A stretch of 64,000 nt of DNA from Undibacterium sp. KW1 (lineage in GTDB: Bacteria > Pseudomonadota > Gammaproteobacteria > Burkholderiales > Burkholderiaceae_D), in assembly GCF_009937955.1 (NCBI RefSeq), contig NZ_AP018440.1, forward strand, positions 62,001 through 126,000, read 5' to 3'. The first letter of the stretch is position 1; every line of letters starts with the position of its first letter. The position numbers and the translations under genes are program-made. Below are positions 1 to 34,169 of the stretch, piece after piece. A model generated the notes under the pieces. That model saw only the letters and a list, made by a program, of their open reading frames with translations, was not told the DNA's origin and made no database searches.

Positions 1-3000
1 ATTCTGCTCTGCAGGCAAAGCTGAGCGGTACAGCAGACCCCTTGCATGACTCACTAAAACAAACTGAATACAATCTGCGCGGACAAATCAAAAACGCCTT
101 TGATGCCATGGGAAACAAAACAGCCTATGTCTACAACGCATTTGGTCAGCTCGCGCGCGAAAATCTCATTGCAGGCAATGTGGTGCTGGAGACTCATGCC
201 TACCAATATGATCATCGTGGTTTTAAAATTGCCGATACTGCAGGTGCTGGCCCGACAGTATCAACTCAATCCACGCAATTTGATGCATTTGGTCGCGTTA
301 CGGCAGTGACAGATGGAAACGGCCAAACAGTTACCAATCAATATGACAGAGATGGTCGCTTAATCGTCACGACGGATGGTAACAATGCGCAAAAGACCAT
401 GTCTTATGATGCCTTTAGCCGCACACTGGAGGTCAAAGATGCTTTAGGTCATTCAACTATCTACCGCTACAACGATGTTGAGCATAGTATGATTATGACT
501 ACGCCTGAAGGCTTGTCAACGAAAACCACCTACAACGGATCTGGACTGGTTTTCATGGTTGACGATCCTGTTGGTAATGCAGAGTATTACACCTACAGAA
601 ACGACGGCAGCATAGATTATGCATTGACTGAACATGCTAACAAACTTGTCCGTAATTATTACGACAATGCTGACCGCGTCATACAAACGACGGACAACGC
701 CGGTGTGATCACTCAGTTTACGTATGACACAGAAAACCGTGTCCTGACAAAAATCTTTGATCCGAACGGGCTCAAACTCAAGACCAGTTATACATACGAT
801 GCGCAAGGTCGCGTCAGCACTACTACCGATGCTAGCGGAGTCGTTACGCAGAATGAATACGACCTCAATGGAAACATTGCCAAAGTAACTGTCGATCCAA
901 CCGGTTTGAATCTGCAGACTGAATACACGCATGATGCTAAGGGCAGGGAACTGACAGTCAAGCGTAGCCAGGGAGGTGTTTTGGCTACCTCCGTAAAATA
1001 TGTGTATAACGATCAGGGACAGCGCATACAGGAAATCAAAGATCCTGATGGTCTGGCATTAACTACAGCCTATGAGTATGACGGTGTCGGCAATGTTATT
1101 CACGTTACCGATGGCAATGGACACGTCACGACGTATTCCTATGACGCAGCGAATCGTTTGCTTAGTACCACGGATGCTCTTGGTAACGTCAGTAGCAATG
1201 TTTACGATGGCATAGGCAACAAAATCAGTAGTACGGATGGGCTGGGAAAAACGACCACCTATAAGTACGACAAAGATAGCCGATTGCTTGAGCAAACGAG
1301 TCCGCTAGGTGTCGTATTGAAGTACACCTACGACGTCGGTGGTAACCGTATTACGGCAACCGATGGAAATGGGCAGGTTACCAAATACACCTACGACGTT
1401 GCGCACCGCGTACAGACAGTAACAGACCCACTGGGCCGTGTCCGTACCAATTTCTGGGATACATATGGACATTTAACAACTGAGAGAGATTGGTCTGGTG
1501 GCCTGACAAATCATTCTTATGATGCAGCCGGGCGAATGACTTCAGAGTCTGTTCCCTTTGGCAATCGTATTTATACATATGATGCCTCTGGTAATCGTCT
1601 GAGTGCGACGCAGCCAGGTAATCTGACTACCAAGTATACATATGATTCCGCGAACAGACTTACTTCACAGATCGATCCAGAGGGTAATGTCACCCGCTAT
1701 ACCTATGATGCTGTGGGCAATCGACTGACCGAAACCGACGCACGAGGTAATACAAAGAGCTATGCTTACAATGCGGCCAATCTGCTTGTGCAAGAGACGG
1801 ATCCATTAGGTAATAAAACGCAATATGCTTACGATGCGGCGGGTAATCGCATCAGTGCAACGTTGGCGAATGGCTCAAAAATTCTCTATGGCTATGATGC
1901 TGATAGCCAATTGGTCCAGGTTACAGATGCTGTTGGTAATATCACCCGCTATGGCTATGACGCAAATCATAACCGCACAAGCGTGACTGATGGATTGGGT
2001 AATATCAAACGCTTCGAGTTTGATGCGGCAAACCGACTGACCGCCGAGATAAATGCTCTTGGCAAGAGCAAGGTCTATGTCTACGATCTGAATGGAAACA
2101 GGACCTCGCAGAAGGATGAGAATGGTAATGTCACGCTCTATGAGTATGACAAGGCAAATCGTCTGATCAAAGAAACCAATGCATTAGGGCAGATAAAATC
2201 GTTTTCTTACGATGTAATGAATAACCTCATTAGCTCAAGTGAAAATGGGGTAACTGTTCAGCGAGAATACAACTACGATACGCCAGCTCAACTCACTCGG
2301 ATTTATGACAATACGTCCCTCCGGGAAGGTGATCTGCAATACACGCTGGATGACGCCAGAAACCGAACCTCGGTCTACATAGCCAGAAGAAATTCTCGCA
2401 TCTCCTACACTTACGATAAAAATGGACGGTTACTGACAGAAAAGGATGAGCTCAATAACGGTGTCGCAAAAACATATTCTTACGATGCCGTCGGCAATCT
2501 GATCAAATCTACAGATACCATGGGTCGTGTCACGACCTATACCTATGATGCCCTGAATCACCTGACAAAAGAAACAGATGCACTGGGTTACACCAGACTG
2601 TACGCCTACGATGTCATGGGTAACCGTACCAGCATCACGGACGAGAACGGCCATGTGACCCAGTTTGCTTACGATGGCGATAGCCGCCTTGTCAGCCAAA
2701 CTGATGCACTTGGGAAAGTAACGCAATACAGCTATGATGCCGCAGGTAATCGTACATTAGTCACCGACGCGTTGAACCAGGTCACGAAGTATGACTACGA
2801 TGCAGAACACAGGCTCATTTCCGTCACCGATGCGCTGGGTAACAAGACCAGCTATACCTATGATAATGTTGGCAATCGCACAGAAATAAAGGATGCCAAG
2901 GGCTTTGTCCAAAAAACGACCTATGATGCAGCTAATCGTGTTACCAGCCATATCGATGAACTTGGTGGAATCGAGACATACGCCTATGATGCAGGTGGAA

Positions 3001-6000
3001 GCCTTGCCTCAGTAATCGATGCAAACGGCGGTACGACCAGTTATACCTACGATACTGGCCACCGTCTGGTCAGCAAAACGGATGCTCTCGGCAAGGTAAC
3101 AACCTACAGCTACAGGAATTATGGCTATGAACGAGACCAAACCGTAATAAGCACCACTGATGCCAATGGCAATATTGTAGACGATATTGTCAATACCTCT
3201 GGCAAGGTGACCATGCATGGTCATGATTATGTATGGGCAAAAAATACATATGATGCTGCTGGCAATAAGATCGCATCCTATGATGAAAAAAATCAAGCCA
3301 CTACCTATGCCTACGATGACAAAAACCGTTTGACTAGCAAGACGGATGCACTTGGCAATAAAATCAGCTACGAATACGACGGAGTAGGCAATCTCACTAA
3401 AATGACAGATGCCAATGGCAAAGTCACCACCTACGTCTACGACGCCAACAACCAGCTCACCAGCACCACTGATGCGCTTGGTAATGTACAAAGCCAGAAC
3501 TACAATGCCGTAGGCAATATCAGTAGCAAAACTGACGGTAATGGCAATACCACCAGCTATTACTACGATGCTGATAATCGTCTGAACAAAACAGTCGACG
3601 CCTTGGGCGTAGCAGAAACCTACACCTATGACAGCGTGGGCAATCGTGCAACGGTCACAGACCGCAATGGCAATACCGTCAGCTACGAGTACAACGGCAA
3701 GCATCAACTCAGCAAGCTGACGTCTGCACTTGGTTTTAACGAAAGCTATGCCTATGACAAAGTTGGTAACCTCACCGCAGTCACCAACAAAAACGGCTTT
3801 ACGACGCTGTATGAATACGATGCCGATAACCGCATCACCAAAAAAACGGATGCACTTGGTTTCACCACCAGCTATACCTACGACAATGTGGGTAACCTGC
3901 TCAAGGAAATCAACACCAACGGCATCGTCATTACCAGTAATACTTACGATGACCACAATCGCTTGACCAAGACAGTTGATGCGCTCGGCAATACGACGTC
4001 ATACACCTACGATAATATTGGCAATCGCCTGACGATGACGAATGCCAACGGTAATCTCACCAGTTATAGCTATGATGCGCTCAATCGCATCAAGGTCGTG
4101 ACCGATGCATTGTCAAAGACAACGGTCTTTACTTATGATGCTGCTGGCAATCGCACCAAGATCACCGACAAGAATGGCAATGCCACCACTTATACGTATG
4201 ATGGCCTCAACCGTGTCGTGGCAGAGACTGATGCGCTAAACAACGTTACGTCTTACACCTATGATGCTGCCGGTAACCGCACCTTGCTGACCGACGCAAA
4301 TGGACACGCTATCACCTACATCTATGATGCTGACAATCGTCTCACGAGTATCAGGGACGCACTGAATCAATCCACAGTCATCGAGTACGATAAAGTTGGC
4401 AATAGCAGCAAAGTCATCGATGGCAATGGTCACGCGACCACCTACAGCTATGACGCTGACAATCGACTGGTCAGCGAACAAGACGCGTTGGGTCACATCA
4501 CCAGCTACGAATACGACAGCATAGGCAATCGCAGCAAAGTCATTGATGCCAATGCTCATGCGACCAGCTACACTTATGATGGCATGAATCGCGTCACCAG
4601 TCAGACAGACGCACTGGGCCATGTCACCACTATCGAATATGATGCCTTCGGTAATCGCAGCAAGGTCACGGATGCCAATGGCCATGCAGTCAGCTACACC
4701 TATGATGTCAACAACCAACTCCTGACTGAAAAAGATGCACTCGGCAAGATCAGCACGTATACCTATGATGCCATGGGTAACCGCATCACCAGTACCGATG
4801 CCAGAGGTAACACCACCAGCTACAGTTACGACAAGCTCAACCGCCTCATCAGTAGCACTGATGCATACGGCAAAATCACCAGCTTCACCTATGATGCCGT
4901 CGGTAACCGTATCAGCAGCATTGATGCCAATGGTGTCACTACCAGCTATGCTTATGATCTTGCAAACCACCTCATCAGTGAAACCGATGCCTACAACAAG
5001 GTAATCAGCTACGCCTATGACGCCAAGGGCAATCGCGTCAAAGTGACCGACAAAAATGGCCATGCCACATTGTACGTCTATGATGCTGATGACCAGCTCA
5101 CCAGCCTGACAGATGCAGATGGCAATGTGACTACCTATGCCTACGACGCAATTGGTAAGCTCACAAAACTGACCGACCCTAACGGCCATGTCACAAGCTA
5201 TACCTACGATGCAGCTAATCGCCTTGCTAGTGAAAAAGATGCGCTGGGCCAAATCACGTCCTATGCCTACGACGCCGTTGGTAACCGCACTACATATACA
5301 GACAGAAATGGCCACACCACGACTTATGTCTATGATGCCGATGACCGTCTTGTCAGCGAAACTGACCCTATGGGCTTTGTTACTGCCTATGAGTACGACG
5401 CCGTCAATAATCGCAGCAAGGTGACAGACAAAAACGGTCACGCCACGCTTTACACTTACGATGCCAATAACCGCATCAGCTCGGAAACTGATGCGCTCGG
5501 CAATGTCACTGCAATCAGCTATGATGCCAACGGTAACCGCAGCACAGTCACTGATGCCAAGGGCAATGTCAGCAGTTTTGCCTATGACAAGCTCAATCGC
5601 CTCGTTGCTCAGACGGACACACTTGGCAATGTCACCAGCTACACTTATGATGCAGTCGGTAACCAACTCAGCAGTACGGACGCCAACGCACATGTCCGTA
5701 CTGCCACCTACGACAAACTCAACCGTATGGTCACCCAGACCGATGCCTTGGGTAAGGTCACCAGTTTTATCTATGACGCTGTAGGTAATCGTATCAGCAG
5801 CACCAACGCCAGATTAGCTACCACCACTTACACTTACGATGCCGCCAATCGCCTTATCGCGCAGACAGATGCATTGGGTAAAATCAGCCGTGTAGATTAC
5901 GATGCAGCCGGTAACCGCGTTAAATTGACCGATGCGAACGGCAATGCGATAACTTACGTCTATGATGCGAACAACCGTGTTGCCAGCGAAACTGATGCTC

Positions 6001-15000: not shown

Positions 15001-18000
15001 GGCCAGAAGAAACAGCACGTTATGACGCCGCAGGCAATGTCATTGAATCCGTCGCCGTCAATGGCAGCCATACCTATGGCTATTACGACGCCGTTGGCCG
15101 CCTCATCGCCCAGGTGGATGCCCTTGGTTATCTGACCCGCTTTGACTATGACAAGAGCGGTAACCTGCTGCAAAAACGCATGTATACCGCAGCAATTGAC
15201 CTCAGCAAGTTTGACCCGGCCAAGATACCTGTGGCAGTGGGTGGCAAGGTCGCCATCAGCAACTATGTCTATGATGCAGCCAACCGTCTGGTAGAACAAC
15301 GTTCACCAGCCAGCCTGCTGATGGACCAGGACAGCCATACAGAAACCAGTGACATCACCATCACCCGCTACCGTTACGACAAGAGCGGCAACCTGGTGCA
15401 AAAAACCGTTGGTGCTGGCAGCAGCGTAGAGCAGAGTGAATACAATTACTATGACAGCCGCAACCGCCGCATCGCCAGCGTCAGCCTGGGCCGCGCGCTG
15501 ACACTGTATAGCTACGACGACCAAAACCGTCTGCAAGCCAAGCTCAGCTACGTCACAGCCATACCACGCAGCGCAGACCTGGCCAGTGTTGCAGCTAACA
15601 CCACTGCATTGCTGGCACTCGTCGCCTCCAACCCTGGCGACAAGGCTACCCGTTATACCTATGACGCGCGTGGTCAGGTTACTAGCGAGGCAGAAGCAAT
15701 CAACCAGGCCAGTGCTTCTGTCAAAGACGCAGAGAGCTTTAATATCGTCTTCACCAGCGCCTATACCAAGAACTATCAGTACGATGCCATGGGCAACCGT
15801 ACTCTGCTTGACGACAATGGCCATGTAACCCGCTCACAATATGATGCCGCCAATCGCGTCACCCATATCGTCGGCCCTGACGGCACAGGCTCGCGCCAGG
15901 CCTATGATGCCGCTGGCAATGTCACCCATAGTGTCACTGGTGAGCGCGCCAGCGAAGCCATTGCCGCCACCAATGTCCACGCCAGCCTCAGCGATGCCTT
16001 GAGTACCACCCTCAATATCAGCTACCACCTGAGCGATTTGCGCATCCCATCCTACGTCGTGTGGGACAGCGTTTCGCACGCCACGCTGGATGGCTATACC
16101 GGCAAGTCCGGGCTCACCGTCAATGGCACTTCGCAAGATGGCTACAGCAGCGTTCCACGCCCAGCCTATAACAGCACCACCTACTACCGTGTGGTCACAC
16201 AAGACAAGGCAGGCAATCTCGCCTATAGCGAAGAAATCAAGCTGGAAATGCCGCCAGAAGTACAAGACGTCAAGGCCAGTGTCGATCTGTATGGCCAGGT
16301 TCACGTCAAGGCACGCTTTGGTCCCGGCATCAATACCCCAACCCTGATCTACGGCCCGCACGGTGCAACCAATACCGGCGTGACCATGAACGCCACAGGC
16401 GACGGTTATTACGAAGGCATACTGCCAGCAGGGCTGGACCCCAATACCCTGGCATTCCGCCTCGGTTGGGCCAATGCCAACGGCGTCGCCTTTGCCAGTA
16501 CCGAACAAAGCTTTGAAGCCCCGGCCAAACGCCAGGGCAGCGTCAACACGCTCTCAGAAGTCGTCACCGACAAAGGCCTGCTGCTCAAGTTCGACAGCCA
16601 GATGCAACCGCTGGGTGCCACCAACATCAGTTTGTTGACAGCCAAATGGCGCGTCTATAAAAAAGGCGTCAATACCGACCCGTTTGCCTCTACCGGCAAT
16701 ACCCTCGACAATGGCCAGTACCACCTCGTATTAGGTGACACCAAGGCCATGAACGCCGGTGTTGAATATGAAATCGTGATCGAAGGCGTCGATAAAGACG
16801 GCAAAGAAGTCATCGTCGATCACATGATCTACAAAATGACAGGCAACACCGCCAATACCACTGTGTACAACACCGTTGCCTGGTCAGCCCCACCAGATGG
16901 CGATTCACAAGTCATCATCGTCAAAGGCCAGCCAGTACCAACAGAACGCATCAAAGGCAGTGCCCCCGTCGCCAACGACCCGGGCAACCCAGGTGTAGAT
17001 GACCGCGTCATCGCCCACCTGCCGCTGGCCGTCAACAGCAGCAGTGTAGGCATCTACTACACCAACCACAACGAAGACCAGAACCAGACCGGTATCAGCA
17101 GCAGCAAATGGATGGAATGGGTTCCCAACTTCGTCAATGGCGAAGACAAAGGCTACTTCGTCCACAAAGGCTACGACCTCAACCTCTACACCATCCTGCC
17201 GCCTAGCGACAGCAGCCGCATGGCCACAGGTTTGCATTTCTCCTGGAACGATGCCGCCACCGGTGGCCTTACCTTTGCCAACGACATCGTCATGGAACAA
17301 TATGGCGGTGGTTACAAAGGCCTCATAGAACACATCCCATTACCAGCCAAAGCCATCAACTACAAAGTCTGGTACCGAGATGCGCTCGGCCATGAAGTCA
17401 TCGTCGATTGGTACAAGGCCAACACCAACCTCACCAGCAACCACCAGGCCAATAGCGAAACCGTGCTCGCAGTAGAGACAGGTGCCGCCATCACCGGCCT
17501 CGTCATGAGCAATGGCCGTTTCAATGGCGGCAGCCTCAACGTGCGCCCAGCGGCAGAATTCATGGACACCATGGTCGTCGCCACCAGCGCCACCGGCCAG
17601 GGCAGCGGCAAACAAGATATCGTCCCCGGTGTTGCCGGTTACTACCGCGATAACCGCTACAACGCCATGAACGCCTTGGTCGGCAGCAGCAGCGACGACC
17701 ACGTCTGGCGCAACTTTGGTGTCGATGCCGACGGCCATGCCGTAGAAACCGACGTCACCGTCACAGAAGGTGGCAATGCCGTCTCCACCAGCTACGCCCA
17801 CTACGATGCACTTGGCCGCCAGGACGCCAGCTACAGCGACGTCTTCACCGCCACCACCATCGTCGGCGGTAGCCCCGTTCAGACCACCCAGCGCAGCGTC
17901 ACCCGCCAAGGCTACGACTACGCAGGCAACGTCAACAGCCAGACCGATGCCACAGGCAACACCAGCACTGCAACATACGACGAAGCAGGCCGCCTCGCCA

Positions 18001-21000
18001 GCCAGACCGACGCCTTGGGTCACACCAAGACCTTCCACTACGACGCCCAGAACCGCCTGGTTGCCACCACCGATGAAAACGGCCACACCAGCTACCGTCA
18101 CTACGACCAAAGTGGTCAGGTCGATAAAACTACCGACGGCACTGGCCTCAGCCAGCAATACCAGCACGACGCCTTTGGCCGCACCATCCGCCAGATCGAT
18201 GGCAATGCCAACACCACCGACCTGCGTTACGACCAGCGTGACCATGTCCTGCAACAAGGCGATACCGTCTTCGAACTCGACACCTGGGGCCAGCGCATCG
18301 CCCAGCATGATGTAGGCGACGCCACCGCCGCCAACGGCCACCGCCGTCGAACCACCTATGACGAATATGGCCGCGTCACCAGCGTCACAGAATGGAAACA
18401 ACTCAAAGACCAGGCACTGCCACAAGCAGTCACTACCTACCGCAGCTATGACACCTACGGCAACCTCAAAGCAGAGGTCGATGGTAACGGCAAAGGCACC
18501 ACCTACGAGTACGACGGTTTTGCCCGCCTGATCCGCCGTACAGACCAGGCAGGGCATACCACCGTCTATACCTACGACGAACAAGGCCGCCAGATCAAAC
18601 AGACAGGTAGCGAAGGCCAGAACATAGAAAAACGCTATGACAACGCCGGTCACCTCATCCAGGTCACCGACTACGCCACCGGTACGCAAACTGACTACGG
18701 CTACAACCTCAACGGCCAGCGGACCCAGGAAAAAGTCCACAGCCAGCGCGACGCCCAGGGCCAGGCCCATGACCGCGATGTGCGCAACGACTACGACGCC
18801 CTAGGCCGCCTCACCGGCTGGAGCGACGTCATCAACGGCGTCACAGAAAGCATGCAATACGACGCCGTTGGCAACCGCACCCGCGTCTATGGCAGCGGTG
18901 GTGGTGCCAGCGCCGACCACATCAGCGTCTATGATGCTGCCGACCGCCTCACCAGCACCATCACCGCCGATGGCGAAGTCAGCCTCACCTATGACGCTGC
19001 GGGCAACCGCAAGACCAGCACCGTAGGCGGCGTCACCACCACCTACGGCTACGACAACCACAACCGCGTCATCGGTGCCAGCAGCACCGATGGCACCAGC
19101 CAGCAATGGGACTACGACAACGCAGGCAACATCACCATGCATGGTGAATTCAAAAACGGCCAGGTCGTCAAACTCACCCGCAGCCGCTACGACCAGACCG
19201 GCCAGGTCCTTTGGACCCGCGTTGATGAAAACACCGGCACCCCCAAAGCCAGCATGCAAGAAACCGCCAATCAATACGACGCCGCAGGCCACCTGTTAGC
19301 CAGCAGCCTCCACATGATTGACGACAAGGTCAACAAAACCTACCAGTACCTGCACGATATCGACGCCACCGGACAAGAAAACCGCATCCGCGCCTATGGC
19401 GACGCCAACGGCAGCAGCATCATGGTCTATAACGCCGACCACCAGCTCGTCATCGTCAACCAGGGCAAAGGCGATGGCAAAGACCGCCAAGAACTTACCA
19501 GTTACATCTATAACGCCGACAACCAGATCATCAGCAAAATCCACGATGACGGCAAACACGGTGTAGAGCGGATGGAATACCACTACACCAACGGCAACAT
19601 CCAGGCCCAGACCGGGACAGATGCCGAAGGCAAAAACCAGAGCAAGATCGACACCGGCAACTACGCCCTGTTCCAGATGCTTGACGACGCCCACCCCGGT
19701 GCCGTCAGCCACTACACCATCAGGACAGGCGACACCCTGCAAGGCATCGCCAGCGCCGTGTATGGCACCAGCAGCTTGTGGTACCTCATTGCGGATGCCA
19801 ATGGATTAACTGCCGACAGCAGCCTCGTCGATGGCAGCGTTATTACCATCCCCAATACTGCACAGACGGGGCGCATCGACAGCAACCGCTTCAAGGTTTA
19901 TAACGCCAGTGAGATTGAGGGTAGCAAGATGCCTAACCTGGCGGCGCCAGGGCAGGGGAATTGCGCGACAGTCACCAAAATCATCATGATTGTCGTCGCC
20001 GTTGTTGTGGCAGCCTATTCAGCCGGAACAATGGCAGGAGTCGCAGGCAACTTCATGCAGGTTCTGGCAGGAGGGGCCAGCGTCTTGACAGGTGGCGTGG
20101 TTGGCGCAAGCAGTGTTGCAGCGTCAGTCGCTGGAGGCGTTGGGCTGACAGCAGTCACCACTGTTGGCTCTCTCGGTGCAGTCCTGACCACCGCAGGCAC
20201 CGCTTTCGTTGCCGGAGCCGCAGGCTCAGTGGCCAGCCAGCTCGTAGGTAGAGCCATCAATCCCGATATGGAGTTTAGCTGGAAGCAGGTTGGCTTGGCA
20301 GGGCTTGCAGCAGGCATCACCGCAGGTGTGGGTGGTGTATTAGGTCCTGTTTCCAACACAGACGCATTCGCACGCGCCGCCAACGTTGCGGGCCGCACCA
20401 TGGCTGGTAATGCAATTACCCAAAAAATTGCAGTTGTAGCCCACTGGCAACAAGAGTTCGACTGGAAAGGTGTGGCAGCCGCAGGTATAGGTAGCGTAGC
20501 CAGTTCTGCTGCCAATGGCATCATGGGCGACAAACTCTTTAACAGCACCTTCACTGACTGGGGTGGCAAACTTGCCCGCGCCACCATCAGCAGCATCGCC
20601 TCTGGTGTCGCTGCCAATGCTTACCAGAATGGCCGTGTCGATCTGACCCAGATCGTCTTGAATTCCTTTGCCAGTTCGCTGGGCAATGGGATTGTGGAGA
20701 CGGGGATGGAGGAATTGCGCAAGAAAGATGAGGCAGAACAAAGAGAACTTCAACTTCAACACGATGAAGACATGCGCGATGCCGCGATGGCCCAAGCGTT
20801 GGGGCAGACTGCGTTGACGAATCAGAGCAAAAATACATCGCCAAATAAGGGGTACATAAATAATACAGTTTTGGAGAAGCCCTCTGAAAACAGCGGCTAT
20901 AGCGGGCCAAGTATTGATAGTTTATTGAACTCAATGCCTGACATTGACGTGGCTGGTGGTGGTAGTGTCAGTATCAAAGTTAATAAATCAATCTCGTATA

Positions 21001-21488
21001 GTAGTGTCGATATGTTCAATGACACTGTACGCGAAGCTAAACGCGGGCCACTGGGTAGCGATGGCATATCGATTGATGAATTGGAAAAAATACTGCCTAA
21101 GCGAGGTGATGTAGCAATACTTCCTGGTAATCGAGTTCTATTTTCAGATGGCCACATGAAAATAAACAGGAGCATAGGTTATTCTAACGAAGAGAATCTT
21201 AGCACCAATGACTTACCCTTTAACGGGAAAATGGGCACTATCATCTTTGTCGACACAAACGCCAAAAAAACTTTCGATGGTCCTGTGGTTGAGCATAACG
21301 AAAATTTGCGAACCGTTCCTTCAAAAATACCAGATGCGGATACTTCACTAAGAAGGGGGCAGGAGTCGAGAACATTGAATATTCTGCCAAAGAGGAACTT
21401 GATAATGGAGACACGCGCTACCATTACCTTGAATCTGTCGTACAAGTGCATAAAGACGGAGGGTATTCATCCCAAAATGTGCCATTGA
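1..21488 (+). CDS. Giant Rhs/YD-repeat protein, 5' end outside window
   Basis: The frame is open from the first bases of the window, so the gene starts upstream; the TTG at 42 is not a credible start. About 7,160 codons are seen before the stop at 21486-21488. Rhs proteins form a large beta-cage that encloses a C-terminal toxin for delivery to neighbouring cells. Order along the gene: YD repeats with the consensus YDA-GNR--TDANG-TTY to about nt 15,950; a beta-rich non-YD stretch to about 17,780; more YD repeats to about 19,660; a LysM domain at about 19,710-19,860; a hydrophobic Gly/Ala-rich stretch at about 19,975-20,270; then a polar linker. No classic Rhs core end motif is evident before the hydrophobic stretch. 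The last ~45 codons after nt 21,355 look out of frame, because coding continues in the -1 frame into the Hint/toxin ORF. Read as one gene, more than 7,900 codons lie in the window. The YD-repeat assignment is certain; the delivery role is from the family. Confidence 0.93.
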   Translation, partial: SALQAKLSGTADPLHDSLKQTEYNLRGQIKNAFDAMGNKTAYVYNAFGQLARENLIAGNVVLETHAYQYDHRGFKIADTAGAGPTVSTQSTQFDAFGRVTAVTDGNGQTVTNQYDRDGRLIVTTDGNNAQKTMSYDAFSRTLEVKDALGHSTIYRYNDVEHSMIMTTPEGLSTKTTYNGSGLVFMVDDPVGNAEYYTYRNDGSIDYALTEHANKLVRNYYDNADRVIQTTDNAGVITQFTYDTENRVLTKIFDPNGLKLKTSYTYDAQGRVSTTTDASGVVTQNEYDLNGNIAKVTVDPTGLNLQTEYTHDAKGRELTVKRSQGGVLATSVKYVYNDQGQRIQEIKDPDGLALTTAYEYDGVGNVIHVTDGNGHVTTYSYDAANRLLSTTDALGNVSSNVYDGIGNKISSTDGLGKTTTYKYDKDSRLLEQTSPLGVVLKYTYDVGGNRITATDGNGQVTKYTYDVAHRVQTVTDPLGRVRTNFWDTYGHLTTERDWSGGLTNHSYDAAGRMTSESVPFGNRIYTYDASGNRLSATQPGNLTTKYTYDSANRLTSQIDPEGNVTRYTYDAVGNRLTETDARGNTKSYAYNAANLLVQETDPLGNKTQYAYDAAGNRISATLANGSKILYGYDADSQLVQVTDAVGNITRYGYDANHNRTSVTDGLGNIKRFEFDAANRLTAEINALGKSKVYVYDLNGNRTSQKDENGNVTLYEYDKANRLIKETNALGQIKSFSYDVMNNLISSSENGVTVQREYNYDTPAQLTRIYDNTSLREGDLQYTLDDARNRTSVYIARRNSRISYTYDKNGRLLTEKDELNNGVAKTYSYDAVGNLIKSTDTMGRVTTYTYDALNHLTKETDALGYTRLYAYDVMGNRTSITDENGHVTQFAYDGDSRLVSQTDALGKVTQYSYDAAGNRTLVTDALNQVTKYDYDAEHRLISVTDALGNKTSYTYDNVGNRTEIKDAKGFVQKTTYDAANRVTSHIDELGGIETYAYDAGGSLASVIDANGGTTSYTYDTGHRLVSKTDALGKVTTYSYRNYGYERDQTVISTTDANGNIVDDIVNTSGKVTMHGHDYVWAKNTYDAAGNKIASYDEKNQATTYAYDDKNRLTSKTDALGNKISYEYDGVGNLTKMTDANGKVTTYVYDANNQLTSTTDALGNVQSQNYNAVGNISSKTDGNGNTTSYYYDADNRLNKTVDALGVAETYTYDSVGNRATVTDRNGNTVSYEYNGKHQLSKLTSALGFNESYAYDKVGNLTAVTNKNGFTTLYEYDADNRITKKTDALGFTTSYTYDNVGNLLKEINTNGIVITSNTYDDHNRLTKTVDALGNTTSYTYDNIGNRLTMTNANGNLTSYSYDALNRIKVVTDALSKTTVFTYDAAGNRTKITDKNGNATTYTYDGLNRVVAETDALNNVTSYTYDAAGNRTLLTDANGHAITYIYDADNRLTSIRDALNQSTVIEYDKVGNSSKVIDGNGHATTYSYDADNRLVSEQDALGHITSYEYDSIGNRSKVIDANAHATSYTYDGMNRVTSQTDALGHVTTIEYDAFGNRSKVTDANGHAVSYTYDVNNQLLTEKDALGKISTYTYDAMGNRITSTDARGNTTSYSYDKLNRLISSTDAYGKITSFTYDAVGNRISSIDANGVTTSYAYDLANHLISETDAYNKVISYAYDAKGNRVKVTDKNGHATLYVYDADDQLTSLTDADGNVTTYAYDAIGKLTKLTDPNGHVTSYTYDAANRLASEKDALGQITSYAYDAVGNRTTYTDRNGHTTTYVYDADDRLVSETDPMGFVTAYEYDAVNNRSKVTDKNGHATLYTYDANNRISSETDALGNVTAISYDANGNRSTVTDAKGNVSSFAYDKLNRLVAQTDTLGNVTSYTYDAVGNQLSSTDANAHVRTATYDKLNRMVTQTDALGKVTSFIYDAVGNRISSTNARLATTTYTYDAANRLIAQTDALGKISRVDYDAAGNRVKLTDANGNAITYVYDANNRVASETDALGKITAYEYDAEGNRTKTTDANGHVTTFVYDADDRLVSETDPMGFVTAYEYDAVGKRTKVTDANGNATTYAYDADNRVISQTNALGHVTTIEYDALGNRSKVTDANGHATSYTYDAENRLLTETDALGNVTSYAYDAVGNRIKRTDANLHATTYAYDANDRLISETDPFGKVTSYTYDAVGNRATITDRNLHVTSFAYDLLNRVSSETDGTGATTSYVYDNVGNRIKVTDGNNHATTYVYDADNRVTSMTDALSKVTSYVYDAVGNRTKVTDANLHSTTYIYDADDRLVSETDALGHITSYEYDKVGTLTKRTDANGHATTYAYDAIYRLLSKTDPLALVTAFAYDAVGNRTKVTDANGHATTYTYDADNRLTSEKDALGNITAYGYDAVGNCTKVTDANNHATNFAYDAENRLISQTDALGKITTYAYNDGGNRIKMTDANGHSTSYTYDGVNRLASVTDALGNSSYLTYDGIGLLISRNEGIGHVTGFTYDAANHLIKQTDGLGNFKTFDYDAVGNRTKMTDANGNVTTYVYDADNRLSSQTDALGDITGYIYDAVGNRAKFTDANGHATTYVFDADDRLISETDALGQVTAYEYDGVGKLTKRTDANGHATTYVYDAVNRLLSETDPMGFVTSYVYDAVGKLTKRTDANGHETSFTYDADNRLVTEKDALGNITSYDYDAVGNRITMTDANLHVTTYTYDADNRLSTAKDALGNVTSYAYDEVGNRVKVTDANGHAVKFSFDKANQLISETDGVGAVTSYAYDKQGNLITKTDARGAVTTFGYDAANRMVNQQDALGKITTFEYDAVGKRTKAIDANGHATTYAYDADNRLVSETDALGKITSYAYDAVGNRTKATDANGHSTTYIYDADDRLTSETDPLGYVTAYEYDSVGKRTKRTDAHGNVTIFAYDADDRLVSQTDALGNVTTIEYDAVGNRSKVTDANGHATSYGYNAANRLVTQTDALGNVTSYGYDAAGNRITVTDPNLNVTTFSYDADNRLAGEKDAYGNTIVYNYDAVGNRSKVTDRNNNVTIYGYDLLNRLTKVTNALGEISTYAYDDVGNRIKATDANGGITSYSYDANNRLLTQTDALGNVSTLEYDAVGNRSKITDANGHFTIYVYDADDRLVSDTDPLGHVTSYEYNKVGKLTKRTDANGHVTTYKYDDIYRLTSETDPMGFITVYAYDAVGNRTKITDKNGNALTYTYDAVNRVLSEKDALNKLTSYAYDAAGNRTALTDKNGHTTTWGFDADNRIISETDALGKVTSIEYDAVGNRVKVTDPNLNVTKYAYDALNRLAIETDALGKFTTYNYDAVGNRSKITDKNGHETTFIYDLANRLTGQVDGVGQLTSYAYDAVGNRIKTTDANKHATIFAYDANDRLISQTDALGQVTSLEYDAVGNRTKFIDGNGHATSYAYDADDRLISQTDALGNITSYELDAEGHRIKLTDANGHATSYVYDAIYRLTSEKDALNHITAYEYDAVGNRSKITDANGHATSFTYDAVDRLVSRTDALGKTAGYTYDAAGNRVSTTDENGHTVSYAYDKVNRLITQTDALGYVVAFEYDAVGNRSKMTDQNGNVTKYGYDSNNRLFTVTDALSGMTQYSYDAVGNRIKVTDANQHSNYFQYDAVNQLVASVDAEGYVVSRHYDQAGNLASLTHFANKFAVANWDGKTVISVTGNAALDQSEGYAYDAVNRQIQHTDGEGHTSSQSYDAVGNVLSVTDANGHATTMAYDAVNRMTTQTNAVGATNTLEYDAVGNRSKVTDALGNATGYAYDANNRMISSTAANGIITAFAYDGIGTMISRTEASGSSKAAKTSWAYNAANQKVSETDAMGGVTTYVNDKVGNLITKTDALGNSIVYDYDAKNRLIKQTDALEFVTQYTYDAKDNLLSTTDARHGVASNSYDANDRLISATDRNSNATTHAYDQSGNEVRQSRGGFTVEYRYNRAGQRTGLTDGNGYATNFVLDAVGNVLQSSQQIDKNGKYATTTYTYDAVNRRASEKSAEGYLTTFAYDLVNNLTSKTGHTSIAAGGAGDVAYTQSYRYDTVYQMTGMTDINGAISSFGYDELGNRVSVGQFIGTAQERHSSSSYDLLNRKVTDIDVLGKVTSYQYDAVDNLLVTTDGDRVTTNVYDAVHNLVKSTNPLGHISLFEYDANGNKIRQTVAAGLAEEQKFIYSYDAENQLVLSTNLTIGNRKTAIAYDALGNRISIAEVNGSTISEQTFHYDANHNVDSSTDNAHVKTTYVYDGAGNLISSTEAKGTAGKERTTSYSYNLDKQLTSITDPMGFSTSFVVDGRGNRVQIRDAEGHLTQQTFDISNHLLTVQTETAKFTSNNYNIAGNLVSTTTGKADGSDARTVSYGYDKKDRVISTIDGEGYQTVIGYDLFDNKLSITGGNFVATPAAPANAPTPAPVPALSDADKSALSKPSTHTAVYDKLNRLISSTDGEGNVTTYGYDARGNRTSVTEASNTRPATTTYTYDGADRVIKIVSPEGAETIYTYGEQHTTKPASETRKNRTGPAVTTTYDYDANGRLIQQTIAGVSLIKHEFDVLGNEISTTNGTQTIKHEYDVDGREIASIDNAGKRTEYTYDKNGNRNSVKDVKGNTSYFWYDADKRMVASLDAEGYLTSYQYDTANNRTGMTQYAARYTGGINLGQVPQAAQQAMDRSVVIEYDKNNHVIAQTTADHVRSEFVNDGAGNKVLDKNFVDTAVKRNTSYSYDNNGRLLSKTTADGVTASYTYDGAGRVITEQLQKAGEVIKLSRNAYDLDGHLVSTTLDPSGIAITQTQKVDDLGNVLESRDGEGRLTTMQYDAMGRLKQVKDASGTILQSFDYDINGNVTSEYGKDGHKTYTYDANNHRTSVTYDSVGKFELESGYGTSNGLTTMQYDAVGNVIQVTNAAGFKTTNYYDRDNRLIAQLDTDNVLHEFDYDAFGDKIGERMYMTRLDKSAQDPAARPVAPAGEMRLYGFEFDQMGRQVRKLYPQVIITHLGNSATSNPTASQNLERPEETARYDAAGNVIESVAVNGSHTYGYYDAVGRLIAQVDALGYLTRFDYDKSGNLLQKRMYTAAIDLSKFDPAKIPVAVGGKVAISNYVYDAANRLVEQRSPASLLMDQDSHTETSDITITRYRYDKSGNLVQKTVGAGSSVEQSEYNYYDSRNRRIASVSLGRALTLYSYDDQNRLQAKLSYVTAIPRSADLASVAANTTALLALVASNPGDKATRYTYDARGQVTSEAEAINQASASVKDAESFNIVFTSAYTKNYQYDAMGNRTLLDDNGHVTRSQYDAANRVTHIVGPDGTGSRQAYDAAGNVTHSVTGERASEAIAATNVHASLSDALSTTLNISYHLSDLRIPSYVVWDSVSHATLDGYTGKSGLTVNGTSQDGYSSVPRPAYNSTTYYRVVTQDKAGNLAYSEEIKLEMPPEVQDVKASVDLYGQVHVKARFGPGINTPTLIYGPHGATNTGVTMNATGDGYYEGILPAGLDPNTLAFRLGWANANGVAFASTEQSFEAPAKRQGSVNTLSEVVTDKGLLLKFDSQMQPLGATNISLLTAKWRVYKKGVNTDPFASTGNTLDNGQYHLVLGDTKAMNAGVEYEIVIEGVDKDGKEVIVDHMIYKMTGNTANTTVYNTVAWSAPPDGDSQVIIVKGQPVPTERIKGSAPVANDPGNPGVDDRVIAHLPLAVNSSSVGIYYTNHNEDQNQTGISSSKWMEWVPNFVNGEDKGYFVHKGYDLNLYTILPPSDSSRMATGLHFSWNDAATGGLTFANDIVMEQYGGGYKGLIEHIPLPAKAINYKVWYRDALGHEVIVDWYKANTNLTSNHQANSETVLAVETGAAITGLVMSNGRFNGGSLNVRPAAEFMDTMVVATSATGQGSGKQDIVPGVAGYYRDNRYNAMNALVGSSSDDHVWRNFGVDADGHAVETDVTVTEGGNAVSTSYAHYDALGRQDASYSDVFTATTIVGGSPVQTTQRSVTRQGYDYAGNVNSQTDATGNTSTATYDEAGRLASQTDALGHTKTFHYDAQNRLVATTDENGHTSYRHYDQSGQVDKTTDGTGLSQQYQHDAFGRTIRQIDGNANTTDLRYDQRDHVLQQGDTVFELDTWGQRIAQHDVGDATAANGHRRRTTYDEYGRVTSVTEWKQLKDQALPQAVTTYRSYDTYGNLKAEVDGNGKGTTYEYDGFARLIRRTDQAGHTTVYTYDEQGRQIKQTGSEGQNIEKRYDNAGHLIQVTDYATGTQTDYGYNLNGQRTQEKVHSQRDAQGQAHDRDVRNDYDALGRLTGWSDVINGVTESMQYDAVGNRTRVYGSGGGASADHISVYDAADRLTSTITADGEVSLTYDAAGNRKTSTVGGVTTTYGYDNHNRVIGASSTDGTSQQWDYDNAGNITMHGEFKNGQVVKLTRSRYDQTGQVLWTRVDENTGTPKASMQETANQYDAAGHLLASSLHMIDDKVNKTYQYLHDIDATGQENRIRAYGDANGSSIMVYNADHQLVIVNQGKGDGKDRQELTSYIYNADNQIISKIHDDGKHGVERMEYHYTNGNIQAQTGTDAEGKNQSKIDTGNYALFQMLDDAHPGAVSHYTIRTGDTLQGIASAVYGTSSLWYLIADANGLTADSSLVDGSVITIPNTAQTGRIDSNRFKVYNASEIEGSKMPNLAAPGQGNCATVTKIIMIVVAVVVAAYSAGTMAGVAGNFMQVLAGGASVLTGGVVGASSVAASVAGGVGLTAVTTVGSLGAVLTTAGTAFVAGAAGSVASQLVGRAINPDMEFSWKQVGLAGLAAGITAGVGGVLGPVSNTDAFARAANVAGRTMAGNAITQKIAVVAHWQQEFDWKGVAAAGIGSVASSAANGIMGDKLFNSTFTDWGGKLARATISSIASGVAANAYQNGRVDLTQIVLNSFASSLGNGIVETGMEELRKKDEAEQRELQLQHDEDMRDAAMAQALGQTALTNQSKNTSPNKGYINNTVLEKPSENSGYSGPSIDSLLNSMPDIDVAGGGSVSIKVNKSISYSSVDMFNDTVREAKRGPLGSDGISIDELEKILPKRGDVAILPGNRVLFSDGHMKINRSIGYSNEENLSTNDLPFNGKMGTIIFVDTNAKKTFDGPVVEHNENLRTVPSKIPDADTSLRRGQESRTLNILPKRNLIMETRATITLNLSYKCIKTEGIHPKMCH
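1000..11900 (+). repeat. Tandem YD-repeat coding array, period about 126 bp
   Basis: The coding DNA repeats in pairs of ~21-residue YD units. Each pair has one half of the type YDADNRL-S-TDALG and one half of the type YDAVGNR-KVTDANGH. This gives a DNA period close to 126 bp over roughly 10 kb, or about 80 double units. Neighbouring units often share runs of more than 15 identical bases, for example around the YDAVGNR codons. The period is less exact before 1 kb and after 12 kb. Confidence 0.85.
15955..17780 (+). other. Beta-rich non-YD insert within the Rhs protein
   Basis: About 600 residues without YD motifs sit between two blocks of YD repeats, in frame. The composition (alternating hydrophobic/polar, rich in Thr, Val, Gly, Asn) and phrases such as TTYYRVVTQDKAGN and EYEIVIEGVDKDG resemble Ig-like or FN3-like beta-sandwich domains, perhaps four to five in a row. 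I do not recognise a specific family. They could be spacer or binding domains on the outside of the Rhs shell. Confidence 0.5.
19710..19860 (+). other. LysM domain inside the Rhs protein
   Basis: The translated sequence has the LysM pattern: YTIRTGDTLQGIA, then YGTSSLWYLIADANGL, then a Gly-x-Val/Ile-ITIPN end. It lies directly after the last YD repeats and before the hydrophobic segment. LysM domains bind N-acetylglucosamine polymers such as peptidoglycan. Here it may anchor the protein or help the released toxin part cross the target wall; that role is inferred. Confidence 0.8.
21350..21361 (+). other. Frame break between Rhs core and Hint/toxin ORF
   Basis: The Rhs frame reads AGA AGG GGG CAG across a run of five G (21355-21359) and then gives low-complexity out-of-frame text to a stop at 21488. 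The -1 frame is open from 21299 and from here reads KKGAGVENIEYSAKEELDNG, which continues naturally into the next ORF. One base added to the G run would join the two. It may be a real mutation, a slippage-controlled switch or an assembly indel; the sequence alone cannot decide. Confidence 0.75.
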
Positions 21489-23725
21489 GTACCGAGATTC
21501 CATTGCGTGAGGGCGCATACGAAGCGATGCAAATACGCTTAAAGGAAAGTCCTGACGAGATCGAGCGAATGTATATTGGCGACTATTTGAAACGAGTAGA
21601 CGCTGAAATCCAATCTGGAGACAGAGCGACTATTGAGGCAGTATTTGAGACACGTTCTGCCGAAGCCAGACGTGGCGATTATCGAAATTACGATGAGCTC
21701 ATGATGTTGGGTCGCGCCTTGCATCCAGAAAATAAATCGGGGCAGGTCGTCGATATGAAAAGCGCACTCAAGGATGTTGTAAAAATTTCTGCAATCAGCG
21801 CAGTTGCGGGCGTCTTTGTCCCGCCACCAGTTGCACGAGGAATATTGACCGCGACAAGCAGATTTGTTGGCACTTGGTGGAAGGCCGGTCTCGGTGTGGC
21901 GGTTGCCGACCAGTCAGCTGCATTTTATGCAACAAGTATCACTGGAGCTGAATTGACCTTGCAAATGGGAACAGGTGCAGTAATACCTAGTCTTGCTGGC
22001 GAGCTCGCTATGGAATTCAAAGGAGCAAAAAATGTATTGAGTGCCCAAAAGACGTTCGCAGGAACATCGGAAGAGCTTGCTGCACTCATGCTGAAAAATG
22101 ATGCCAGATTAAAAGACTTGGCAGCTTCAACACGAAGTCTGGAAAAAGAGATCGGTGTAGCTCCAGCAGCAAAAACTGAGCTGGAAATAACATCTCAAGC
22201 GTCAAATGTTGGTAATAGAAGTGTGGCGACGCCAAGTTCTTCAGCAAGTCAAACTGAGTTGCAAGCGACTAATAGCACTTTGAGAAATGAGTCAAGAGGA
22301 GCCTCAGTCGCCAAAGTAGAGCAGGAACTTGCAACAGAGTCAGGCGCTGCAAAGTCATTGAACCAGGAAGGTAATTGGGGAGCTTCGGCAATCAAAAATG
22401 ACGCAGCTCTGGCTAATTCGGAAAGACAAGTGGGAGCTAGTGCTGCCAGAAACGAAGCCGGTGCTACTAATCCAGCTAGGGAAATAGGGCAATCAGAAAG
22501 AAATCTCGGAGGAGGGCAAGCAAATATAGGTAGTGGAGCTGAGCGCGTTGAAAATGCAGCCGCAGCTCAGGCTTTAAGGAGTGATAGCGCAATTGCACGT
22601 GCAGAAACACAAGCGGCGTCTGCCGCAGATAATTTAGCTACCAGGGGAAATCTGCAGCAAATTTTAGGTACCTCAACGTCCAAAGTCTCGGGCAACCTAC
22701 AAGTCACAAGACGAGCGTGCTTTGTTGCAGGCACATTGGTGCAAACAAACGCGGGCTTGAAAGCCATTGACCAGTTGACGGTTGGCGAACGTGTACTCTC
22801 CATGAGCGAAGAGACAAGCGAGATCACTTACAAAGGTGTTGTGCGTACCATGCGCATACCTGACAAGGAGATTTACCGCATCTCAGTAAGCGGTAATAAC
22901 AATGACATAGAAGTAATTCGCGCCACAGAAAACCATCCGTTCTGGTTGGAAGGCACGGGTTGGGTACAGGCGGGCGATCTGCAAGCTGACGACAAACTGA
23001 CCACTCCAGAAGGCCAGGTTGTTGGTGTTGTCGCTGTTGAGAACGAGTCTGCTACAGAGACCGTGTATAACATTGAAGTGGCTGATTTCCATACTTACTT
23101 CGTTGGGCATTCACAGGTTCTTGTTCACAATGATGATTGTGAAATCCTAGAAGTACTCCATACTAGAGCGAAGGGTAATGTTGTATCGTTCAAATTTGAT
23201 CCTAGTGGCAATGTTAAAATTGGATACGGTGCTAATGCTGAGACTGGGGTGACGCATTCTGTTTCTGCGGAGACGATGGCTGCGGCAAGGGCTAGGTCTG
23301 GGATGCAAAGCAGTACCGGTAAAACAGGTAATGTAGGGTCTTTTTCTGCTGATGCACCATATGTTCATAGATTTGATCCTACAGTACCAGGCAGACCAGA
23401 TCCTAAATTTTCATTAGACTCAATGAATTTTGAAAATCCAATCGGACATAATGCTCAAGGTTTCCCAAGGGACGCTGGAAAGTTCTGGAAACAGTGGATT
23501 GAATTGAATCCGGAATCAATTAGCAAGAATAATAGGTATTTAATTGAAAATTATGATCGACTAAAAGTTTCTCCTAGGGTCGATCAAACTTGGATACAAT
23601 CATTTCCAGAACATGGTAATTATTTGAGTGATGTCCTTATTCATCACCATGTTGATCACGGAAAATACACAATCCCTGTTCCTGGTAAAACGCATGTCGG
23701 ATCTGGTGGTCCCTGGCATTTATAA
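21446..23725 (+). CDS. Rhs C-terminal region: Hint domain plus HNH-like toxin
   Basis: This is the 3' continuation of the giant Rhs gene in the -1 frame (open from 21299; GTG at 21446 is only the first start-like codon). Residues ~1-110 are a linker. Residues ~110-420 are Ala/Ser/Asn-rich and low in structure. A Hint (intein-like) domain covers nt 22718-23131: it opens with CFVAGTLV (Cys at residue 425), has the block TENHPFWL, and ends with VHND. Such domains cut themselves to release the toxin. The last ~195 residues form the toxin. Its C-terminus has HHH followed by DHGKYTIPVPGKTH and GGPWH, resembling the His-rich active site of HNH/endonuclease-VII-like (LHH/WHH/GHH type) nuclease toxins. 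The SUKH gene next door supports this, since SUKH proteins are common immunity partners. Nuclease activity is inferred. Without frame restoration the toxin would not be attached to the Rhs shell. Confidence 0.85.
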   Translation: MHKDGGYSSQNVPLSTEIPLREGAYEAMQIRLKESPDEIERMYIGDYLKRVDAEIQSGDRATIEAVFETRSAEARRGDYRNYDELMMLGRALHPENKSGQVVDMKSALKDVVKISAISAVAGVFVPPPVARGILTATSRFVGTWWKAGLGVAVADQSAAFYATSITGAELTLQMGTGAVIPSLAGELAMEFKGAKNVLSAQKTFAGTSEELAALMLKNDARLKDLAASTRSLEKEIGVAPAAKTELEITSQASNVGNRSVATPSSSASQTELQATNSTLRNESRGASVAKVEQELATESGAAKSLNQEGNWGASAIKNDAALANSERQVGASAARNEAGATNPAREIGQSERNLGGGQANIGSGAERVENAAAAQALRSDSAIARAETQAASAADNLATRGNLQQILGTSTSKVSGNLQVTRRACFVAGTLVQTNAGLKAIDQLTVGERVLSMSEETSEITYKGVVRTMRIPDKEIYRISVSGNNNDIEVIRATENHPFWLEGTGWVQAGDLQADDKLTTPEGQVVGVVAVENESATETVYNIEVADFHTYFVGHSQVLVHNDDCEILEVLHTRAKGNVVSFKFDPSGNVKIGYGANAETGVTHSVSAETMAAARARSGMQSSTGKTGNVGSFSADAPYVHRFDPTVPGRPDPKFSLDSMNFENPIGHNAQGFPRDAGKFWKQWIELNPESISKNNRYLIENYDRLKVSPRVDQTWIQSFPEHGNYLSDVLIHHHVDHGKYTIPVPGKTHVGSGGPWHL

Positions 23726-23739
23726 AAATGGAAGTTAAT

Positions 23740-34166: not shown

Positions 34167-34169
34167 TGG

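What the first reader, a model, noticed from the sequence alone, without database searches (positions are those of the whole stretch)
1..23725. One of the larger Rhs genes: more than 7,900 codons in the window and still open on the left
Usual Rhs proteins have about 1,400-2,500 residues. Here the YD array alone fills ~16 kb and the 5' end is not reached. Such a shell would hold far more volume than known Rhs cages, or form several cages, or a fibre. The layout YD / beta-domains / YD / LysM / hydrophobic / Hint / toxin is unusual.
Basis: partly seen in the sequence, partly recalled or inferred. Interest (0 to 1): 0.7.

Follow-up and report, generated by a model that had tools for sequence, protein, structure and literature searches.

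The report
Giant YD toxin, flagellum-type exporter
A bacterial plasmid carries a gene for an 8,200-residue repeat protein of a toxin-carrying family, and bacteria with such genes usually also carry a second, propeller-less flagellum-type machine, which is probably how these giant proteins leave the cell.

Summary
The giant is real but is not one gene to 23,725. It starts 3.2 kb left of the window, runs 8,221 codons and stops at 21,488; the Hint/HNH-toxin part lies in another frame. Assembly collapse is unlikely: a same-genus relative has the array unit for unit (76% identity, no repeat gained or lost, dN/dS about 0.11) in one open frame of 8,802 codons with a different C-terminus.

No PAAR, VgrG or SpvB domain was found at its start, and no TssK in the genome. 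Giants of this family (YD toxins and cadherin-type proteins, frames up to 15,898 codons) share an N-terminal module, mostly a fixed-spacing promoter, and occur with a second flagellar-type export locus without flagellin. Its FliF is in 31 of 294 family genomes; 30 of these are among the 36 with a strong giant start, the 31st has contig-end fragments. Six of the 36 lack it (four incomplete assemblies, two with short frames). The link held in one genome of another order and three of five plasmid records.

Best reading: a flagellum-derived type III system for giants; export is inferred. The window copy and both chromosomal giants are frame-broken; error or mutation cannot be told.

The parts
1..21488 (+). 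Giant YD-repeat ORF, 3' 7,161 codons; starts outside the window at C2:58,823 (8,221 aa in all)
2481..12935 (+). Regular part of the YD array (residues 1887-5371), 42-residue super-repeat; repeat number the same in the same-genus orthologue
15843..17912 (+). Region without strong YD units (residues about 6341-7030), beta-type by look, conserved in the orthologue (identity 0.87 over residues 6421-7000)
17913..19052 (+). Second YD stretch (residues about 7031-7410)
19713..19853 (+). LysM domain (22.1 bits, cut-off 20.9)
19962..20410 (+). Hydrophobic Gly/Ala-rich region after LysM (boundaries by eye)
21299..21488 (+). Interval in which the reading frame changes (the two open frames overlap here)
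21299..23725 (+). Second open frame with the pre-toxin, Hint and toxin parts (first start codon 21,446, 759 aa)
22736..23134 (+). PT-HINT domain (101 bits)
23447..23710 (+). Tox-HNH-HHH nuclease toxin domain (96 bits)
23728..24297 (+). SMI1/KNR4 (SUKH-1) protein, probable immunity gene
59593..59622 (-). Giant-type promoter CTAAAC-N15-YGGACTATT in front of a remnant of another giant
57674..59524 (-). Remnant of a second giant: YD repeats and five CBM5/12 modules, no N-terminal module

Best explanation
The window gene is a plasmid-borne giant YD-repeat polymorphic toxin (carrier, Hint, HNH nuclease, SUKH immunity). It belongs to a family of giant proteins that are most likely exported by a dedicated flagellum-derived type III secretion system. 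SHOWN by sequence: the giants share an N-terminal module, and most of those examined a promoter CTAAA-N16-(T/C)GGAYW. Nearly all genomes with long giant frames carry a second FliF, with a syntenic locus of export gate, ATPase, rod, L/P rings and hook, plus a FliA-like sigma factor and TPR proteins, but no flagellin; its FliF lies 6-19 kb from a giant in 18 of the 21 genomes where both are on one contig. INFERRED: the sigma factor reads the giant promoter; the TPR proteins are chaperones or targeting factors; the N-terminal module is the export signal; the chain is threaded out unfolded and folds outside into a YD shell or fibre; LysM and the hydrophobic part hold or pass the C-terminus; Hint frees the nuclease. 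In the sequence as held, the window copy would make carrier without toxin.
For: FliF2 profile over 294 family genomes: 31 with E <= 2.7e-92, next best 3.5e-54; 30 of 31 are among the 36 strong N-term carriers, hypergeometric P 6e-34, and 15 of 15 FliF2 genera among 19 carrier genera of 44, P 1.7e-8 (no correction for phylogeny). The 31st, G228, has contig-end N-term fragments (E 7.5e-15). FliF2 within 25 kb of a giant in 18 of 31, same contig in 21. Own locus C1:4,414,008-4,437,053: Pfam FliF, FliE, FliP, FliO, FliM/FliN, FlgC, FlgD, FlgE, FlgG, FlgI, FlhA, FlhB, FliR, T3SS ATPase, sigma-70 regions, FliQ; Flagellin_N matches only elsewhere. Promoter: 17 of 22 giants at one spacing, Markov control mean 0.04; in the own genome 4 matches, all exact: before own1, own2, own3 (from which the pattern was read) and, new, before a giant remnant. 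Outside the sample: Parachitinimonas caeni, found by giant N-term only, has FliF2 at 1.1e-118 and 20 of 26 locus proteins in one stretch; three of five giant-bearing plasmid records carry it. Swapped C-terminus in the orthologue.
Against: No export was shown. Six of 36 carriers lack FliF2: four are incomplete assemblies (68-92%; one of them, G031, has giant frames of 5,329 and 4,282 codons), two (G241, G079) are complete but hold only 657- and 401-codon giant frames. The two Eleftheria plasmids with giants lack FliF2; their chromosome was not searched. The window's own plasmid has no FliF match, so its giant would rely on the chromosome. In Parachitinimonas the stretch read showed no match to the TPR proteins, the small protein or the sigma factor (the stretch ends soon after FliP), and it is on another contig than the giant. 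A canonical sigma-28 pattern found 0 of 18 promoters; the motif used was then read from these same sequences. The FliA-like protein is below the NCBIfam cut-off (91 of 189.6 bits), and TPR similarity to T3SS chaperones is marginal (LcrH/SycD E 0.008, SctY E 7e-5, both under cut-off). Passing chains of 5,000-16,000 residues through such a channel has no precedent known to me.
Confidence: 0.78

Rival explanations
1. The giants leave by another route (type I, II or an unknown system) and share only regulation and location with the second flagellar locus, as surface factors produced together.
For: Export was not measured. The giants have no domain that ties them to the flagellar gate. Some giants lie far from the locus: the window gene is on a plasmid without FliF, and in 10 of 31 genomes FliF2 is on another contig than any giant start found, mostly in draft assemblies.
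Against: 30 of 31 co-occurrence over 15 genera, synteny in another order and on a conjugative Burkholderia ubonensis plasmid where locus, TPR genes and giant are adjacent. No exporter gene of another type stood out among the gene clusters shared between 19 stretches (judged from ORF starts of the clusters printed; other exporters were not searched for).
Confidence: 0.13
2. The second locus is an ordinary lateral flagellum, and the giants are accessory proteins of its filament.
For: Rod, L/P ring, hook, hook cap and FliM/FliN genes are all there. A Janthinobacterium genome paper speaks of polar and lateral flagella gene sets (PMC8929069, passages); whether that is this locus is not known.
Against: No flagellin, FliD, FlgK/FlgL or Mot gene is among the features listed for the two annotated plasmid loci (the tool says such tables are incomplete); the own Flagellin_N matches lie 1.9 Mb or more away. 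The protein at the FliG position is 226 aa and matches no Pfam or NCBIfam model.
Confidence: 0.05
3. A classical Rhs toxin loaded on a type VI spike or a Tc-type carrier.
For: YD repeats, Hint, nuclease toxin and immunity gene.
Against: No PAAR, VgrG or SpvB domain in the first 1,092 residues. No TssK in the genome with the E. coli control positive. TssK in 22 of 36 carriers against 165 of 294 overall, Fisher P 0.59.
Confidence: 0.02
4. The window copy is a decaying pseudogene, so its array is a relic. (Not exclusive with the best explanation, which concerns the family.)
For: Frame break before Hint; both chromosomal giants are also frame-broken; a truncated giant remnant lies on the same plasmid.
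Against: dN/dS about 0.11 in the array (synonymous sites are saturated in windows over the first 2,000 residues) and no stop in 8,221 codons. All three breaks lie near short homopolymer runs, which also fits sequencing error. The orthologue frames are open. The selection measured is that of the lineage, so a very recent break is not excluded.
Confidence: 0.35

Closest known systems
Rhs / YD-repeat polymorphic toxins (PMC3482391, passages seen; solved Rhs cores 8qja, 7q97, 8uxt)
   Same: YD repeats, C-terminal toxin, Hint release domain, SUKH immunity; the array model matches Rhs cores locally (Foldseek E 6.4e-48)
   Different: About five or more times longer, 42-residue regular array, no PAAR/VgrG found, LysM and hydrophobic part before the toxin, tied to a flagellar-type locus
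Bacterial flagellum (flagellar type III secretion system)
   Same: Gate, ATPase, MS ring, rod, L/P rings, hook, FliM/FliN and a FliA-like sigma factor recognised
   Different: No flagellin in the locus, no recognisable FliG, added TPR proteins, giant cargo genes next door
Non-flagellar type III secretion (injectisome), derived from the flagellum (PMC3459982, start of abstract and passages seen)
   Same: A flagellar export machine turned to protein delivery
   Different: Keeps FlgH/FlgI rings, rod and hook; no secretin among the features listed for the two annotated loci
Flagellar type III system of a non-flagellated predatory bacterium (Fulano 2020; seen only as a cited sentence and reference in PMC13288982; that it concerns Lysobacter is recalled)
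   Same: Said there to secrete antimicrobial toxins through a flagellar system
   Different: The paper was not held, so a link to giant YD cargo in it is neither shown nor excluded
Database entries 'LysM peptidoglycan-binding domain-containing protein' / 'YD repeat-containing protein' of Variovorax and Paraburkholderia
   Same: Relatives of the LysM-to-hydrophobic region in proteins of 4,739-5,130 aa; one carries an AHH toxin domain
   Different: Named by domain only; no export route given there

Membership tests
Polymorphic toxin (YD/Rhs carrier type) | Constant carrier with exchangeable C-terminal toxin | tested here: met
   Orthologue 75.7% identical to residue 7,982, then a different C-terminus (its own toxin type was not identified); kin with Ntox15 or AHH ends
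Polymorphic toxin (YD/Rhs carrier type) | Toxin domain followed by an immunity gene | tested here: met
   Tox-HNH-HHH 96 bits, then SMI1/KNR4 32.3 bits (cut-off 25.4); the toxin is out of frame with the carrier
Rhs element core protein (NCBIfam NF041261) | Score above the curated cut-off of 2000 bits | tested here: not met
   105 and 90 bits on two pieces; pieces, not the whole protein, were scanned
Closed Rhs/Tc cage | Shell that superposes on solved cages | tested here: inconclusive
T6SS Rhs effector | PAAR/VgrG N-terminus and a T6SS in the genome | tested here: not met
   Pfam on the first 1,092 aa: RHS repeats only; TssK 0 of 1 with control positive; other T6SS markers not tested
Tc toxin (TcB-TcC) | SpvB/TcdB-type N-terminal domains | tested here: not met
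   None at E <= 0.01 on the first 1,092 aa
Flagellar-type export apparatus (second locus of the genome) | Export gate FlhA, FlhB, FliP, FliQ, FliR, ATPase and MS ring | tested here: met
Flagellum (motility) | Flagellin gene in the locus | tested here: not met
   Flagellin_N only at C1:2,489,436 and 2,254,526; none listed in the loci
Flagellum (motility) | FliG rotor protein | tested here: inconclusive
   226-aa protein at the FliG position without Pfam or NCBIfam match
Injectisome | Secretin outer-membrane ring | tested here: inconclusive
   None among the features listed for two annotated loci, FlgH and FlgI there instead; no secretin search of the own genome was made
Substrate of the second flagellar-type system | Secretion lost when the system is removed | not testable with these tools
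   needs an experiment

The most novel reading that the evidence does not exclude
A new class of secretion machine: flagella that lost their filament and export one kind of giant protein instead, so that a single chain of 4,000-16,000 residues takes the filament's place as a tethered fibre, ending either in a swappable toxin or in an adhesive cadherin-type array. The module moves between species; one copy sits on a conjugative plasmid.
Probability: 0.4. Interest if true: 0.95.

Novelty: new variant of a known kind. Interest (0 to 1): 0.86.

Why it matters
It would answer how some of the largest bacterial proteins get out of the cell and give giant YD toxins a delivery route other than T6SS, Tc or Sec. 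It would be a fresh case of a flagellum turned into a secretion machine, with cargo, sigma factor, promoter, chaperone candidates and signal module all named and open to gene-deletion tests in environmental bacteria. The frozen repeat number over more than 200 units also makes array length a testable trait.

Tried and rejected
Canonical sigma-28 pattern: 0 of 18 upstream regions; loose versions of the later motif gave 11 and 13 of 19. The fixed-spacing motif came from looking at the sequences, so its count is not an independent test; controls are the spacing scan (of the 12 other spacings from 10 to 22, eleven give 0 regions and spacing 11 gives 2), the Markov shuffles (mean 0.04 regions, at most 1 region in any of 1,000 runs) and the genome-wide search (4 matches, all exact; reversed-pattern control 2 matches with up to 1 mismatch). 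Promoter rows dropped: L012, L013, L014, L019, L021 (no start codon found by my script), L020 (same gene as G235), L094 (not added).

Genome-contig scan with the single N-term sequence: 1 relative only. Self-BLAST for internal blocks gave nothing; block against block worked. Shifted self-alignment of the array slid to identity and was dropped, replaced by four non-overlapping pieces. T6SS association rejected.

Literature: ten searches. No row listed links giant YD proteins with a flagellar locus; three searches held 155, 112 and 177 papers, of which 15, 12 and 15 were listed. Subscription papers and preprints are not held.

N-term threshold: 64 of 294 genomes match at E <= 0.001, but hits weaker than 1e-10 sit mostly in Rhs-size frames of about 1,400-1,900 codons; I used E <= 1e-20 (36 genomes), chosen after seeing the table. 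stretches were chosen around TPR or giant hits, so TPR presence there is no evidence; one search is the unselected test; 32 of 37 genomes have a TPR match at E <= 1e-6, several weak or in long unrelated frames.
Full report
1. What is in the sequence. The window is C2:62,001-126,000 of a two-contig genome; C2 is 135,601 bp, plasmid-sized, C1 6,557,365 bp. DNA of the window matches the Undibacterium sp. YM2 plasmid pUYM01 at 98% over 27% of a 24.9-kb query, so the genus is probably Undibacterium (inference). The YD frame is open from the left edge to a stop at 21,488; upstream it begins at ATG C2:58,823, giving 8,221 aa. PT-HINT, Tox-HNH-HHH and an SMI1/KNR4 gene follow, but Hint and toxin lie in a different frame, open from 21,299. 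So the finding's single gene of more than 7,900 codons is two frames.

2. The break. The genome has two more giants on C1, and each also changes frame once; all three breaks are near short homopolymer runs. In a same-genus genome, G298, the counterparts are open over 8,802 and 9,671 codons, and a more distant kin, G203b, runs 9,723 codons in one frame to PT-HINT and Ntox15. The break is therefore specific to this genome's copies: sequencing error or recent mutation.

3. The array is genuine and frozen. 199 strong YD units, 42-residue super-repeat. Longest exact direct repeat 24 bp, best 252-bp self-identity 79%. Against G298, residues 1-7,982 align at 75.7% identity; within residues 1,401-5,700 the only gaps are of 1, 2 and 5 residues, dS is about 1.36 and dN/dS about 0.11; in the 400-residue windows over the first 2,000 residues synonymous sites are saturated. 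In 135 of 164 42-residue windows the best match in G298 is the one at the orthologous position. A second pair, G192/G203a (10,955 and 10,887 codons), aligns at 75.7% with no gap of 8 or more residues before column 9,579. Paralogues in one genome, G203a/G203b, differ by blocks of 824, 126 and 42 residues besides smaller gaps. So unit number changes between paralogues but is held between orthologues. After residue 7,982 the C-terminus of G298 is a different one: the exchange expected of a polymorphic toxin.

4. Shape. A model of 840 array residues is all hairpins (pLDDT 85) but has pTM 0.33; it matches Rhs, teneurin and Tc shells locally (E down to 6.4e-48) with TM about 0.3 and large rmsd. Cage or fibre cannot be told. 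The chromosomal giant own2 has three blocks of about 1,800-1,950 residues, 61-73% identical, each with its own shell start, and G298b shows three such starts at like places.

5. Not T6SS, not Tc. The first 1,092 residues match only RHS repeats in Pfam; the other chromosomal kin, own3, has a sub-threshold DUF6531. TssK is absent from the own genome with the E. coli control positive and is no commoner in carriers, 22 of 36, than overall, 165 of 294.

6. The family. The first 220 residues find strong relatives (E <= 1e-20) in 36 of 294 family genomes. Besides YD toxins these include giants with hardly any YD: G107 with 15,898, G227 with 12,805 and G259 with 12,840 codons; for G107 and G227 the C-terminal 900 residues match cadherin-like and DUF642 domains. 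The start is a charge-poor, Gly/Ser/Asn-rich segment MVAIVxGNGLGL... in 22 aligned sequences. It resembles type III signals in character only; that is recalled, not tested.

7. The neighbours. A TPR gene stands divergently beside own1 and own2 (79% identical) and has a match at E <= 1e-6 in 32 of 37 genomes; by my reading it is within 25 kb of a giant in about 20 of them. Clustering the genes of 19 stretches around TPR or giant hits gave flagellar genes. In the own genome C1:4,414,008-4,437,053, between own3 and own2, with FliF 17 kb from the start of own3, holds FliP, FliO, FliN, a FliM-type protein, FlgE, FlgD, ATPase, FliF, FliE, FlgC, FlgI, FlgG, FlhA, FlhB, FliR and a sigma factor (Pfam), FliQ and, below cut-off, FliH (NCBIfam), FlgB and FlgF (by comparison with pUYM01) and FlgH and FlgA (by tblastn to the genes so named on pUYM01). 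I call two more FliJ and FliK from position alone; they matched no NCBIfam model. The main FliF is at C1:2,481,092 and C2 has none; Flagellin_N matches are at C1:2,489,436 and 2,254,526 only.

8. The unselected test. FliF of this locus, run over the same 294 genomes, falls into two classes: 31 genomes at E <= 2.7e-92 and the rest from 3.5e-54 up. 30 of the 31 are among the 36 giant carriers (P 6e-34; by genus 15 of 15 within 19 of 44, P 1.7e-8; neither corrects for phylogeny). The 31st, G228, has giant starts cut by contig ends. The six carriers without it are four incomplete assemblies, one of which (G031) has giant frames of 5,329 and 4,282 codons, and two complete genomes with giant frames of only 657 and 401 codons. 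Where both are on one contig (21 of 31), 18 are within 25 kb and three are 83-113 kb apart.

9. Outside the sample. Parachitinimonas caeni (Neisseriales) was found by the giant start only; it has this FliF type at 1.1e-118 besides its ordinary one, and 20 of 26 own-locus proteins match one 20-kb stretch in the same order, the sigma factor and TPR proteins not among them; it lies on another contig than that giant. Of five plasmid records with a giant start, three carry the locus, and these three head the list of FliF-matching plasmid records (91 records of 72,556, 30 listed); the lead of the B. ubonensis record (6e-59 against 1e-47 for the next) is modest. On the conjugative B. ubonensis plasmid pMSMB2035 the locus from FlhB to sigma factor, two TPR genes and a 4,897-aa giant are adjacent. 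In the Variovorax record 22 of 26 proteins, TPR and sigma among them, lie in the 20 kb before the giant. On pUYM01 FliF lies 12.7 kb from a 12,948-aa giant. The two Eleftheria plasmids carry giants without the locus.

10. The promoter. Upstream of 17 of 22 giants stands CTAAA-N16-(T/C)GGA(T/C)(A/T) at one spacing; Markov-shuffled regions give 0.04 regions on average and at most 1 in any of 1,000 runs. The 22 include related genes, the motif was read from them, and five loci were dropped. In the own genome CTAAAC-N15-YGGACTATT has four matches, all exact: before own1, own2 and own3, from which it was read, and before the remnant in the window (control 2). TAAA with a GATA-type -10 box at this spacing is what I recall of sigma-28 promoters; the locus codes for a FliA/WhiG-like factor (91 bits, below the cut-off of 189.6). 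That this factor reads this promoter is inferred.

11. Mechanism. Most likely the giants are the main or sole substrates of a filament-less flagellar-type exporter: expressed by its sigma factor, brought by TPR proteins, threaded N-terminus first, folding outside. YD giants end in exchangeable toxins; cadherin-type giants may be adhesins. How the toxin enters a target cell is unknown; LysM, the hydrophobic part and Hint suggest wall contact, membrane passage and release. own3 carries CBM5/12 modules, which hints at chitinous targets for that member.

12. Known or new. YD polymorphic toxins, flagellar export and flagellum-derived secretion are known kinds (PMC3482391 and PMC3459982, passages seen). 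A flagellar system that secretes antimicrobial toxins is cited in PMC13288982 (passage seen); the cited paper was not held. PMC3482391 asks, for a different RNase family of firmicutes, whether a toxin may be delivered by the flagellar system. In a paper on huge proteins (PMC11573180, passages) the terms RHS and toxin do not occur. Ten searches listed nothing on giant YD proteins with a flagellar locus (see tried and rejected). I rate it a new variant of a known kind.

Noticed in passing
window 57674-59622 (-): Remnant of a second giant: exact giant promoter followed, without the N-terminal module, by YD repeats and five CBM5/12 modules.
   Followed up: partly
window 32439-34243 (+): Group II intron (RF01999 and RF00029) with its reverse transcriptase at 32886-34166; related copies on Acinetobacter and other plasmids.
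   Followed up: partly
window 61221-64000 (+): IetA-type ATPase (PADLOC E 1e-120) followed by a 610-codon frame that runs off the window, possibly the partner of an IetAS defence system (partner not tested).
   Followed up: partly
window 27165-31416 and 54562-57344: Repeated unit, two copies 2,285 bp apart and a third place with some of the same ORF sizes; looks like an insertion sequence.
   Followed up: no
G000:C1:4484880-4512311 (-) (L006, L007): Chromosomal giant with three tandem blocks of about 1,800-1,950 residues and an exact 1,070-bp direct repeat.
   Followed up: partly
G000:C1:4951345-4962316 (L009): A further YD gene region cut into several frames.
   Followed up: no
L097:15338-16470: On pUYM01 FlgI is annotated in two pieces, so that copy of the locus may itself be broken.
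   Followed up: no
L005:8283-11703 (-): HipA toxin-like gene and a ParA-like gene upstream of the giant on the plasmid; G298 has a like-ordered set near its TPR gene (ORF starts only).
   Followed up: no
paralogues G203a/G203b (L025-L028): Paralogous giants in one genome differ by 126 and 42 residues (multiples of 21) and by one block of 824, while orthologues keep repeat number.
   Followed up: partly
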